Positions 24,401 to 42,400 of a stretch of 64,000 nucleotides of DNA are shown in pieces. Positions within the stretch are counted from its first letter, which is position 1. Every line of letters begins with the position of its first letter. The position numbers and the translations under genes are program-made. The stretch covers positions 9,307,854 to 9,371,853 of the forward strand of contig NC_092122.1 in NCBI RefSeq assembly GCF_045679555.1, in the 5' to 3' direction. This DNA comes from Salvelinus alpinus. Lineage: Eukaryota; Chordata; Actinopteri; Salmoniformes; Salmonidae. Below the pieces are notes generated by a model that saw nothing but the letters and a program-made list of their open reading frames with translations, was not told where the DNA came from and ran no database searches.

Positions 24401-27400
24401 TATCCATCTGAGCCCTTCATTGCCCCGTCTTTCTGGCTCTCTTTCCCACTCTCTCCTTCCATCCCTAACCTTCTCTCTCGGTGACAGGATGTGGCTTAGT
24501 CTTACCACTGGCTCCATGGGTAGAGTTCAGTGTGTCTGAGAGGCCCAGGGTTATAAATACTTCCATCTCAGCCATGCACACAGAGACAGACAGAGAAACA
24601 GATATACAGCCCACTGGCAATATATAGACACCCCTTCCATGACTCATATCACCCAGTCACATCCAAGGCCAAACACCCATATGCAGGGGGTCTGCAAAAT
24701 GCATATCCCCCTATCCCATACAAGTCACATTCAATACATTGAGTAAGACATATTGTTCTAAGTTGAGAGCAGTCAAAACAAATCAGAAAGTCATCCTTCA
24801 ATCACAACAAAAGCACATTTTACATAAACAAATAAGTAGTTAAAACATAACCGAAAGCTACATGCATAATGAATCAATGTACCCATTTTAAACATGTATC
24901 CATAGGCAACTTGAGCATACTTCCTTATCACCGCATTACCTTACAAACAATACCGCCTATTCTATACTCACAGTTGAAATACCTAACCGACAAGGCATTA
25001 ACCCATACCAAATATAAACATCGACCTACACATTGGCTGGCTACTAAACATCCATTCCAAAGAGTGGTGAAGCATGCAGGGATCATACATTTACAATACA
25101 GACCTCGGACAAGAACTATGGGTACACATTGGAGACAAACTGTACATGCTCTTAAAACTGCCCTACTGTACTGTAAAGTAATACACACATCAGGCAGGTG
25201 GGACGAGCTGTCTAAAATCATCTCCAGAATTCCAAGTATTTGTCTCCATCCTTCTTCAGTACAGTAATATGGTGCAGGTGTTTCCATCCTTCCTCAGTAC
25301 AGTAATATGGTGCAGGTGTGATATGATCCTTCCTCGGTACAGTAATATGGTGCAGGTGTGATATGATCCTTCCTCGGTACAGTAATATGGTGCAGGTGTT
25401 TCCATTCTTCCTCAGTACAGTAATATGGTGCAGGTGTCTCCATCCTTCCTCAGTACAGTAATATGGTGCAGGTGTCTCCATCCTTCCTCAGTACAGTAAT
25501 ATGGTGCAGGTGTCTCCATCCTTCCTCAGTACAGTAATATGGTGCAGGTGTCTCCATCCTTCCTCAGTACAGTAATATGGTGCAGGTTACTCCATCCTTC
25601 CTCAGTACAGTAATATGGTGCAGGTGTCTTCATCCTTCCTCAGTACAGTAATATGGTACAGGTGTCTCCATCCTTCCTCAGTACAGTAATATGGTGCAGG
25701 TGTCTCCATCCTTCCTCAGTACAGTAATATGGTGCAGGTGTCTCCATCCTTCCTCAGTACAGTAATATGGTGCAGGTGTCTCCATCCTTCCTCAGTACAG
25801 TAATATGGTGCAGGTGTCTCCATCCTTCCTCAGTACAGTAATATGGTGCAGGTTACTCCATCCTTCCTCAGTACAGTAATATGGTGCAGGTTACTCCTAG
25901 CCTTCTATCAGTATCATCAACTGAGGAGTTTCCTTCATATGCTACCACTTCTATTGCTGCTAGCAGTCCATTCAATTTAGATTAGTGATCATTTAGAAAA
26001 GGTACCAAGTAGAGGACTAATTAACAGTATTGGGACCTAGCCATTAGAGTACACCAGGGGAGGCTCCTCAAAGGAGGAAGGGAATGACCATCCTCCTCAG
26101 TGAACTTCATAAAGATAAAAATTGTAAAACATTTTTTAAAAGTATAACTTTTTTTAGATAAAACTATACAAAATATAATCACGTCACCAAATAATTGATT
26201 AAAACACTATTTTGTAATGGTCTTCAGTAGCCTCAACATCACTCTGTAAGGTAGCACCATGGTGTAGCCGGAGGACAGCTAGCTTCCGTCCTCCTCTGGG
26301 TACTTTGACTTCAAAACAAAACCTAGGAGGCTCATGGTTCTCACCCCCTTCCATAGACTTACACAGTAATTATGACAACTTCCGGAGGACGTCCTACAAC
26401 CTATCAGAGATCTTGCAGCATGAACTGAAATGTTGTCCACCCAATCAAAGGATCAGAGAATGAATTTAGTACTGAAAGCATAAGCTACAATAAAATATGG
26501 TGAGTCGTTGATTCAAAGAGAGAGAAAGACAATAGTTGAACAGTTTCGAACAAATACATTTCTTCCAAAATGAAGGAGAAGCGAGAGAGAAATTGAGAGA
26601 GATTGTAATTTTTTTTCACTTTCAGTTTCACTTACTTTATGTTATGACATGGTTTGGCTTGTAAAGTTTTTTTGCCTGGTCACATACAGCTGATGTGTTG
26701 TGCATTGAAGTCCACAAGTGAAGGGACAAGGTGAGAGGAGGAGAGTGCATAGATGCTAGAAGGAATACAACGTGGCTGCTATGAAAGTGAACTGTGTTTA
26801 CATGTGATCAGGGGTATATTCATTCCGCCAATTCTGTTGAAAAACATTTCTTAAACGGAAGCAAACGGAACCAAAAGGGGATAAACATACCTGAATGTCC
26901 AATTGAAACTCTCATTTGCAACTGTTGGACTAATAATTACACCCTAGATTAGCTAGATGCAGGCAAGAGTTTGCAAGACGGTACTGAATGTATCACCTCA
27001 AAATTTTCTCTTGACCTGTGTGCACATATGTTGTAAACTTTCATTCATAGGCTCTCTCATGATGGGTATAGGGAAAATTCTAGTATCATGTAGTAGCCTA
27101 AACCTATTGCTGTTACATTGAACTAGGTGAATGGAATATGAATGACAGTCATCCAATATGTTGTAAAAGAAATAAGGCCATGCTCATGAAAAAAATGAAT
27201 TGTCCTCCCTCATCTTAAATGATACTGACCACCACTGGAGTAGGTACACACATGGGCAAACATCCATCCCAGCACCCTAACTGACTCCCTGACGCTACCA
27301 TTCCAGCACCCTAACTGACTCCCTGACGCTACCATCCCAGCACCCTAACTGACTCCCTGACGCTACCATCCCAGCACCCTAACTGACTCCCTGACTCTAC

Positions 27401-39400: not shown

Positions 39401-42400
39401 CCTGACTCTACCATCCCAGCGCCCTAACTGACTCCCTGACCCTACCATCCCAGAACACTAACTGACTCCCTGATCTTACCACCCCAGCACACTAACTGAC
39501 TCCCTGATCTTACCACCCCAGCACCCTAACTGACTCCCTGACTCTACCATCCCAGCACCCTAACTGACTCCCTGACTCTACCATCCCAGCACCCTAACTG
39601 ACTCCCTGACCCTACCATCCCAGCACCCTAACTGACTCCCTGACTCTACCACCCCAGCACCCTAACTGACTCCCTGACTCTACCACCCCAGCACCCTAAC
39701 TGAACCCTAACTGACCCCTGATCTCCCCACCCCAGCACCCTAACTGACTCCCTGACTCTACCATCCCAGCACCCTAACTGACTCCCTGATCTCACCACCC
39801 AGCACCCTAACTGACTCCCTACTCTCCCACCCCAGCACCCTAACTGACTCCCTGACTCTACCATCCCAGCGCCCTAACCCTGACTCCCTGACTCTGACTC
39901 CCATCCCAGCACCCTAACTGACTCCCTGACTTACCACCCCAGCACCCTAACTGACTCCCTGACGCTACCATCCCAGCACCCTAACTGTCTCCCTGACCCT
40001 ACCATCCCAGCACCCTAACTGACTCCCTGACTCTACCATCCCAGCACCCTAACTGACTCCCTGACTCTACCATCCCAGCACCCTAACTGACTCCCTGACT
40101 CTACCATCCCAGCACCCTAACTGACTCCCTGACTCTACCATCCCAGCACCCTAACTGACTCCCTGATCCTACCATCCCAGCACCCTAACTGACTCCCTGA
40201 TCTCTACCATCCCAGCACCCTAACTGACTCCCTGACCCTACCATCCCAGCACCCTAACTGACTCCCTGACCCTACCATCCCAGCACCCTAACTGACTCCC
40301 TGACCCTACCATCCCAGCACCCTAACTGACTCCCTGACCCTACCATCCCAGCACCCTAACTGACTCCCTGATCCTACCATCCCAGCACCCTAACTGACTC
40401 CCTGACCCTACCATCCCAGCACCCTAACTGACTCCCTGATCTTACCACCCCAGCACCCTAACTGACTCCCTGACTCTACCATCCAGCACCCTAACTGACT
40501 CCCTATGTCCCACCCCAGCACCCTAACTGACTCCCTGATCTTACCATCCCAGCACCCTAACTGACTCCCTGATCCTACCATCGCAGCGCCCTAACTGACC
40601 CCTGACTCTCCATCAGACCCTAACTGACTCCCTGACTCTACCATCCCCCAGACACCCTAACTGACTCCCTGACTCTACCATCCCAGCACCCTAACTGACT
40701 CCCTGATCCTACCATCCAGCACCCTAAGTCCCCTACTCCCTGGCTCTACCATCCCAGCGGCCTAACTGACTCCCTGACCTCCCATCCAGCGGCCTAACTG
40801 ACTCCCTGATCTTACCACCCCAGCACCCTAACTGACCCCTGATCCTACCACCCCAGCGGCCTAACTGACTCCCTGACCTACCATCCCAGCACCCTAACTG
40901 ACTCCCTGATCTTACCACCCCAGCACACTAACTGACTCCCTGATCTCACCACCCCAGCACCCTAACTGACTCCCTGATCTTACCACCCCAGCACCCTAAC
41001 TGATTCCCTGACTCTACCATCCCAGAACCCTAACTGACTCCCTGACTCTACCATTCCAGCACCCTAACTGACTCCCTGACTCTACCATCCCAGCACCCTA
41101 ACTGACTCCCTGACTCTACCATCCCAGCACCCTAACTGACTCCCTGACTCTACCATCCCAGCACCCTAACTGACTCCCTGACCCTACCATCCCAGCACCC
41201 TAACTGACTCCCTGACTCTACCACCCCAGCACCCTAACTGACTCCCTGACTCTACCATCCCAGCACCCTAACTGACTCCCTGATCTTACCATCCCAGCAC
41301 ACTAACTGACTCCCTGATCTCACCACCCCAGCACCCTAACTGACTCCCTGATCCTACCATCCCAGCACACTAACTGACTCCCTGATCCTACCATCCCAGC
41401 ACCCTAACTGACTCCCTGATCTTACCACCCCAGAACCCTAACTGACTCCCTGATCTTACCACCCCAGCACCCTAACTGACTCCCTGATCTTACCACCCCA
41501 GCACCCTAACTGATTCCCTGACTCTACCATCCCAGAACCCTAACTGACTCCCTGACTCTACCATCCCAGAACCCTAACTGACTCCCTGACCATAACATCC
41601 CAGCGCCCTAACTGACTCCCTGACCCTACCATCCCAGCACCCTAACTGACTCCGGGACTCTACCTGTGACCTTCTCCGAGCTTAGAGAGTCTGGTTAGTG
41701 CCAGTGGTCAAATGCTGGAACGTCCTCCCATACACACTTTCAGCCAATCAGTGTCAAAACAGCAAACAAGCATCCAGATCTTTCTGGCAGGGGTTCCACT
41801 CTGAACACCACCAAACGTGCTCCACACATATGTGGTGAGTTTGAATGCCGCTCTGATGGGAGTACCAGTGCCATTGAATCATAGCGTGTATGTGTGCGCG
41901 AGTGAGGCTGCGTTCCATGGCTTTCTGATCCCTGATCCTGCTGTGTTCCTGCCTCCTGCCCTGGGACTGGATGGGGCTGTCAGGGTCTGGAAGAGACTCA
42001 AAGGGGATAAAGCGCTGGAAGATCACATTCCGTAACTCTGATCTAACACTTCCTACTGGCCTACTGCTGGAGCACTCACCCCGCTAGCACCCCTGGAAAG
42101 CCTGGGACAGCCATACACAGGTGCTGACTGCATACACACGCACATGGACACACACTCACACACACGCATTGCAAACCTATAACACAAACACCCTTGCCAA
42201 AATGCCCCATCCCTAACAACTCTCCAGCAATTCCAATCACCATCCCACCCCAGACAGATACAATACTGAACACCCCATACACACAGTGTGAAGCTAGTCA
42301 TTATGACATGCCACAGAGGGTAACAGGCACAAACACTACAGTGGCAGGGCTTTTGTAACGATGGCTCTAGACATGCCAACAAGCAACCCCCCCAGTCACA

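What the first reader, a model, noticed from the sequence alone, without database searches (positions are those of the whole stretch)
27264..41664. 14.4-kb, roughly 424-copy 34-bp minisatellite inside cped1 intron 1
Seen directly: a 34-bp unit repeats almost without interruption for 14.4 kb, more than a fifth of the window. It sits between cped1 coding exons 1 and 2, so every cped1 transcript must cross it. Intronic arrays this long are rarely assembled intact, and the copy number is likely to vary between individuals. Inference: length variation could affect cped1 splicing or expression.
Basis: partly seen in the sequence, partly recalled or inferred. Interest (0 to 1): 0.75.

Follow-up and report, generated by a model that had tools for sequence, protein, structure and literature searches.

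The report
Ancient intronic minisatellite, expanded in one ohnolog
A 14.4-kb run of about 424 copies of a 34-letter DNA unit really does fill most of the first intron of the fish gene cped1, and the same repeat with only about 79 copies sits at the same spot in the gene's duplicate on another chromosome, so it appears to be an old repeat that now differs greatly in length between the two copies and offers a built-in test of whether such length matters.

Summary
The array is real and placed as stated: 27264-41664, 34 bp x 424.1, 91% match. cped1 runs on the minus strand. The array fills 59.8% of the 24,095-bp intron between the first two coding exons found, so the unspliced RNA carries the G-rich strand.

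Main new result: a collinear cped1 duplicate on another chromosome, most simply an ohnolog, has the same unit between the same flanks, about 79 copies in 2,677 bp. An exact 22-mer of the unit occurs 282 times in the 2.37-Gb assembly, equal to the counts in these two arrays. The minisatellite thus predates the duplication, and length has diverged 5.4-fold. The long array holds an exact 2,285-bp tandem block duplication: recent length change or assembly error.

Against a functional reading: canonical G-quadruplex motifs in the long array do not exceed composition, a sampled stretch of its RNA folds no better than shuffles, and zebrafish cped1 mutants showed no lean-tissue phenotype (passages). 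The long array has one G-run intact in 12% of counted units (96% in the short) and 103 donor-like GTAAG sites against 1. Effects on cped1 are untested. Most likely a tolerated, near-neutral intronic minisatellite.

The parts
27264..41664 (-). 34-bp minisatellite, about 424 copies; commonest unit on the cped1-sense strand AGGGAGTCAGTTAGGGTGCTGGGATGGTAGAGTC
30105..34663 (.). exact tandem block duplication inside the array: 2,285 identical bases at 30105 and 32379, lag 2,274 bp (66.9 unit lengths); a 799-bp exact part recurs at 37759
28794..29201 (.). indel-rich patch inside the array, candidate consensus error or old degraded units
   Evidence: one 400-bp bin (about 28865-29264) holds 58 indels against 0-23 in the other 35 bins (counts include gap pairs at unit positions 29/31 that stand in for substitutions)
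39659..40870 (.). second, milder indel-rich patch inside the array
44502..44750 (-). cped1 coding exon 1 (83 codons, hydrophobic stretch near the N-terminus), donor TAT|GTAAGT
20229..20406 (-). cped1 coding exon 2 ([11 protein letters not shown]...), acceptor TTCCTCAG|GTC, probable donor GCG|GTGAGA
20407..44501 (-). cped1 intron 1, 24,095 bp, GTAAGT...TTCCTCAG
25241..25891 (.). second minisatellite in the same intron, 38 bp x 17.0; in the duplicate gene it is longer (30.6 copies)

Best explanation
This is an ordinary minisatellite that arose once in intron 1 of cped1 before the gene was duplicated together with its surroundings, most simply in the salmonid genome duplication. It has stayed at that spot in both copies, and in this copy it has lengthened by tandem duplication of blocks of many units (unequal exchange or break repair); some shortening in the other copy is not excluded. 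It is transcribed as G-rich RNA and removed with intron 1. It is tolerated because the sense strand offers no acceptor or poly(A) signals by simple patterns and the reading frame is not touched. Any effect on cped1 is probably small and quantitative: extra transcription time, R-loop tendency, or binding of G-run and UAGGG-binding proteins. Shown here: position, strand, shared origin, unit composition, block duplication in the assembly. Inferred: unequal exchange, recency, direction of length change, near-neutrality.
For: Array and gene placement. Second copy on C11 at 35674474-35677150; its matches to the 301-base query are 84-91% identical. It lies between cped1 exons 1 and 2 that are 93% and 90% identical in protein. 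The flanks abut at the same bases: window 27261 and 41668 align to C11 flanks that end within 6 bases of the C11 array. The duplicate region is about 92.6% identical over 26,264 aligned sites (greedy chain of 27 blocks, gaps left out). Block duplications in the long array: 22 pairs of exact matches of 200 bp or more, longest 2,285 bp. Sense strand of the array (14.4 kb): 0 poly(A) hexamers, 1 branch-point-like site and 0 pyrimidine-tract acceptors, against 8, 179 and 51 in the other 9.7 kb of the intron.
Against: No RNA or individual-level data. The long array carries donor-like sites (106 at or above the real exon 1 donor by a recalled matrix, against 1 in the short array), which could matter. 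The exact 2,285-bp duplication could be an assembly error.
Confidence: 0.75

Rival explanations
1. The array regulates cped1 in a length-dependent way through G-quadruplexes in the sense DNA or RNA, as described for the TERT intron 6 repeat VNTR6-1.
For: Sense strand is G-rich (G 46.5%, C 9.6%) with 1,207 runs of three or more G. Motifs with loops up to 12: 253 against 76 in shuffles (max 97). The shorter duplicate has 54 canonical motifs against 14 in shuffles (max 21 of 200), and its G4Hunter profile (mean 1.29, 65% of windows at or above 1.2) equals that of the VNTR6-1 unit (1.32, 65%). VNTR6-1: 38-bp unit, predicted sense G4, deletion changes splicing (PMC11830802, abstract and passages).
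Against: In the long array, canonical motifs (loops up to 7) number 48 against about 37 in shuffles, with shuffle maxima of 48 to 53 in four sets. Its G4Hunter mean is 1.00 with 22% of windows at or above 1.2. By the same regexes the VNTR6-1 unit scores 0, so the regex is a poor guide to a working G4. Predicted secondary structure of a 341-nt stretch is no better than shuffles (z 0.86; this model does not include G4). Zebrafish cped1 mutants show no difference in the phenotypes measured (PMC9674140, passages).
Confidence: 0.1
2. The long array acts through protein or snRNP binding: about 100 GTAAG donor-like sites recruit U1, and over 1,200 G-runs plus 355 UAGGG(A/U) sites recruit hnRNP H/A1, affecting donor choice or elongation.
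For: 106 sites score at or above the real exon 1 donor (TAT|GTAAGT) in the long array, against 1 in the short one; 4 and 7 in the rest of the two introns. TAGGG[AT] 355 and TTAGGG 317 in the sense strand, 0 in the antisense.
Against: Matrix and binding motifs are recalled, not from a call. A shuffle of the same composition already gives 60 such sites (max 71 of 30 shuffles). No acceptor-like sites in the array by a simple pattern, so no pseudo-exon can be built from it alone. No RNA data.
Confidence: 0.08
3. Part of the array length is an assembly artefact (falsely duplicated or badly joined long reads).
For: The 2,285-bp exact tandem duplication in an array whose neighbouring units differ by about 11% (identity 0.89 at lag 34). 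Two indel-rich patches, one with 58 indels in a 400-bp bin.
Against: Removing one block would still leave about 12 kb. Shorter exact repeats at many other lags are found in the array. No N in the window.
Confidence: 0.2
4. The array and its counterpart are copies of a dispersed satellite or transposon-borne repeat that landed twice.
For: Weaker matches (65-78%) elsewhere in the genome.
Against: The exact 22-mer is counted only as often as it occurs in the two cped1 introns, and the arrays abut the same flanks. TRF on the 12 loci fetched around the weaker matches lists no array with this unit.
Confidence: 0.02

Closest known systems
Human TERT intron 6 VNTR6-1 (PMC11830802; abstract and passages seen)
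   Same: Intronic minisatellite with a unit of similar size (38 bp), G-rich on the gene-sense strand, length-variable
   Different: 24-66.5 copies (about 1-2.5 kb) against 424; stronger G4Hunter profile than the long cped1 array; tested effect on splicing, none tested here; no duplicated partner gene with the same array in the passages I saw
Human CEB1/CEB25 G4 minisatellites in yeast (PMC5491262; passages seen)
   Same: Tandem G-run units that can be unstable in length
   Different: There instability depends on short loops and tested G4 formation; here the loops between G-runs are about 3-9 bases by reading the unit, and nothing was tested
Human ABCA7 VNTR, 10,000 bp (PMC6857246; start of abstract in a search listing only)
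   Same: Very long minisatellite tied to a gene that needs long reads to measure
   Different: Different gene; unit and homology not compared
41-bp array on contig C2 of the same genome, 13,430 bp
   Same: Minisatellite of almost the same length in the same assembly
   Different: Different unit; within 151 kb of a contig end; gene context not examined

Membership tests
minisatellite (VNTR-type tandem array) | head-to-tail units of about 10-100 bp | tested here: met
   34 bp x 424.1
minisatellite (VNTR-type tandem array) | one or a few loci rather than dispersed | tested here: met
   exact 22-mer: 253 and 29 in the assembly, 253 and 29 in the two cped1 arrays
minisatellite (VNTR-type tandem array) | copy number varies between individuals | not testable with these tools
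   only one assembly; 424 against about 79 copies between gene duplicates
duplicate gene pair from the salmonid genome duplication (ohnologs) | collinear duplicate region on a different chromosome | tested here: met
   27 aligned blocks, C37 window against 60 kb of C11; one 416-base block is off the diagonal
duplicate gene pair from the salmonid genome duplication (ohnologs) | divergence dated to the genome duplication with an outgroup | not testable with these tools
   no relative of this genome is held
G-quadruplex regulatory VNTR (VNTR6-1 type) | G4 motifs on the sense strand beyond composition | tested here: inconclusive
   long array: loops up to 7 not beyond shuffles (48 against about 37, maxima 48-53), loops up to 12 beyond (253 against 76, max 97); short array beyond (54 against 14, max 21)
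G-quadruplex regulatory VNTR (VNTR6-1 type) | length or deletion changes splicing or expression | not testable with these tools
   no RNA data

The most novel reading that the evidence does not exclude
The two cped1 introns carry about the same number of canonical G-quadruplex motifs in their arrays (48 and 54) although one array is 5.4 times longer, because the long array lacks one intact G-run in 88% of its counted units and carries donor-like GTAAG sites instead. This would fit a limit on G-quadruplex load per transcribed intron, so that only G4-weakened units could be amplified.
Probability: 0.06. Interest if true: 0.7.

Novelty: new member of a known kind. Interest (0 to 1): 0.4.

Why it matters
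Whether very long intronic repeats change a gene's output is usually confounded by comparing different individuals. Here one nucleus holds two copies of the same gene with the same repeat at the same place, at 424 and about 79 copies, and with different G-quadruplex and donor-like content. Reads that separate the two copies would test the effect of length directly. If nothing differs, that is good evidence that even a 14-kb G-rich array in intron 1 is tolerated.

Tried and rejected
RNA structure of the transcript: one 341-nt stretch of the sense strand folds no better than shuffles (z 0.86, 78 of 100 shuffles at least as good), and the antisense is also unremarkable (z -0.67, 21 of 100). Canonical G-quadruplexes as the hallmark of the long array: rejected, since composition explains the count. 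A dispersed repeat family: rejected. Weak matches elsewhere: the 12 further loci fetched cover the weaker places listed, and TRF (period 12 or more, score 100 or more) lists other units there. Sequence collections: the unit pattern had no match in viral contigs or genome contigs, which hold no fish genomes, so this says nothing. One attempt to count intact G-runs by splitting units (part) was flawed because the cut point fell inside the fourth run; I use the regex count, which covers 396 of about 424 and 68 of about 79 units. The gapped alignment places gap pairs at unit positions 29/31 where substitutions are likelier, so its indel totals are inflated. Papers: ten searches. No paper held has both 'cped1' and 'salmonid' or 'cped1' and 'minisatellite'. 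The ohnolog-minisatellite search listed 8 of 12 papers and I saw none on this topic by title; one search was too loose (8 of 402 listed, none with cped1). The library lacks most subscription journals. The paper on mouse Cped1 splicing (PMC6201759) is not held. Recalled, from no call: human CPED1 protein, donor-site matrix, R-loop motif rule, hnRNP and U1 motif preferences, mutation rate, dating of the salmonid genome duplication.
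Full report
OBSERVATION. A 16-base core (up to 2 mismatches) occurs 413 times in the window against 0.12 expected. By anchor parsing, 387 of 416 intervals are exactly 34 bp. The array shows as a strong GC-skew stretch in the composition profile.

GENE AND STRAND. Reading the exons gives coding exon 1 at 44750->44502 and exon 2 from 20406, both in phase 0 with GT and AG at the intron ends. Exon 2 probably ends at 20229, before a GTGAGA donor. The same two exons are open in the second gene copy with the same exon 1 donor. Intron 1 is 24,095 bp and the array is 59.8% of it. cped1 therefore transcribes the G-rich strand: sense composition G 46.5%, C 9.6%, GC skew +0.66.

A SECOND COPY. 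Searching the window's own genome (2.37 Gb, 928 contigs) with 301 bases of the array found one other strong array, on contig C11 (this search did not list the window's own array, so its list is not complete). I fetched 60 kb around it. It holds cped1 exon 1 (93% protein identity over 83 aa) and exon 2 (90% over 60 aa) with the array between them: 28474-31150 of the joined stretch, 2,677 bp, about 79 copies. The window flanks that end at 27261 and begin at 41668 align to C11 flanks that end at 31150 and 28468, so the arrays are positionally the same. A greedy chain of 27 blocks is 92.6% identical over 26,264 aligned sites, gaps left out; within intron 1 the figure is 93.3% over 6,902 sites, a set that includes one 416-base block off the diagonal. 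The exact 22-mer GGGAGTCAGTTAGGGTGCTGGG is counted 29 times forward and 253 times reverse in the whole assembly (only the first 100 places are listed, counts stated as whole). The C11 array has 29 on that strand and this array 253, so by count none lies elsewhere. The simplest reading is one minisatellite older than the duplication, with a 5.4-fold length difference since. The second minisatellite in the same intron, 38 bp, goes the other way: 17.0 copies here, 30.6 on C11. Between the two genes, exon 1 has 6 nonsynonymous and 2 synonymous codon differences and exon 2 has 6 and 5, so constraint on these first exons looks weak.

HOW IT GREW. Units coded by variant show long repeated strings. 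Exact internal matches of 200 bp or more number 22 pairs. The longest is 2,285 bp at 30105 and 32379, lag 2,274, that is, two adjacent blocks of 66.9 unit lengths without a single difference, while neighbouring units differ at about 11% of sites. With a mutation rate of about 1e-8 per site and generation (recalled), no difference in 2 x 2,274 sites means fewer than roughly 66,000 generations, unless conversion has erased differences or the assembler has doubled a block. Two patches are rich in small indels: one 400-bp bin has 58 against 0-23 in the other 35 bins (all bins include gap pairs that stand in for substitutions). They may be unpolished consensus or old units.

WHAT THE TRANSCRIPT WOULD CARRY. 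In the array's sense strand: 1,207 runs of three or more G, 317 TTAGGG, 355 TAGGG[AT], 0 AATAAA/ATTAAA, 1 branch-point-like and 0 pyrimidine-tract acceptor sites. The last three are 8, 179 and 51 in the other 9.7 kb of the intron. An R-loop start rule written from memory gives 460 overlapping hits on the sense strand, 0 on the antisense and 12 in the rest of the intron. Canonical G-quadruplex motifs (loops up to 7): 48, not beyond shuffles (means 36.5-37.0; maxima 48-53). With loops up to 12: 253 against 76 (maxima 97 and 89). RNA folding of a 341-nt sample is not better than shuffles on either strand.

DIFFERENCE BETWEEN THE TWO ARRAYS. The short C11 array has 54 canonical motifs in 2.7 kb against 14 in shuffles (max 21 of 200), and 65% of windows reach G4Hunter 1.2 against 22% in the long array. 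The cause is mainly the fourth G-run: AGGG before TCAGGG is intact in 65 of 68 counted C11 units but in 49 of 396 here, where AGAG (153), AAGA (99) and AGGA (69) dominate. AAGA makes GGTAAGA, and 106 sites here score at or above the real exon 1 donor by a recalled matrix, against 1 on C11. Shuffles of the long array already give 60 such sites (max 71 of 30), so the excess over composition is under two-fold, while the difference from C11 is large (7.36 against 0.37 per kb; the rest of the two introns has 0.41 and 0.50). Because the intact run is shared by C11 and by a minority of units here, it is probably ancestral. Two loci and one amplification history cannot separate selection from a founder effect.

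MECHANISM. I commit to a tolerated minisatellite growing by block duplication, removed with the intron, with at most small quantitative effects. The closest tested system is TERT VNTR6-1, where a G4-prone 38-bp intronic repeat shifts splicing (PMC11830802, abstract and passages). It is a fair analogy for the short array and a weaker one for the long array by G4Hunter score. In yeast, among CEB25 variants, only G4s with short loops drove minisatellite instability (PMC5491262, passages), which does not favour G4-driven growth here. Zebrafish cped1 germline and somatic mutants showed no significant difference in the phenotypes measured (PMC9674140, passages), so even a real effect on expression might have little consequence.

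NOVELTY. Long genic minisatellites are known, and another 13,430-bp array exists in the same genome; it was found because it weakly matched my query, so it is not a random sample. No held paper joins cped1 with salmonid or minisatellite. What is worth keeping is the paired-gene design: same repeat, same intron, two lengths, one nucleus.

Noticed in passing
window 25241-25891; G000:C11:35683255-35684417: A second minisatellite (38 bp) in the same intron is also shared by both cped1 copies, but longer on C11 (30.6 against 17.0 copies), opposite to the main array.
   Followed up: partly
window about 17280-20061: Sequence absent from the C11 copy (window 17279 and 20062 align to nearby C11 bases 43223 and 43227), with stretches at 17499-17754 and 19806-20064 that both match the same two C11 places elsewhere: looks like an inserted LTR-type element; it carries a 27-bp minisatellite at 18042-18732.
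   Followed up: no
array 27264-41664, positions within the unit: Variation in the long array clusters at unit positions 14-17, 23 and 29-31 (counted from 0), while the first 14 positions are almost invariant in about 424 units; the C11 array varies mostly at other positions. Unexplained; amplification of a few variants may suffice.
   Followed up: partly
cped1 exons 1 and 2, 44502-44750 and 20229-20406: Of the codons that differ between the two cped1 copies, 12 are nonsynonymous and 7 synonymous, suggesting weak constraint at this end of the protein.
   Followed up: no
L021 3280-9996 and L022 1-6709 (G000:C2:137280-150709): A 41-bp minisatellite of 13,430 bp within 151 kb of the start of contig C2.
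   Followed up: no
L016, L017, L018 (G000:C10 around 85.51, 85.55 and 85.74 Mb): The same series of different minisatellites (29, 54, 46, 15, 24, 37 bp) appears three times within 240 kb, once inverted, which suggests a segmental duplication rich in minisatellites.
   Followed up: no
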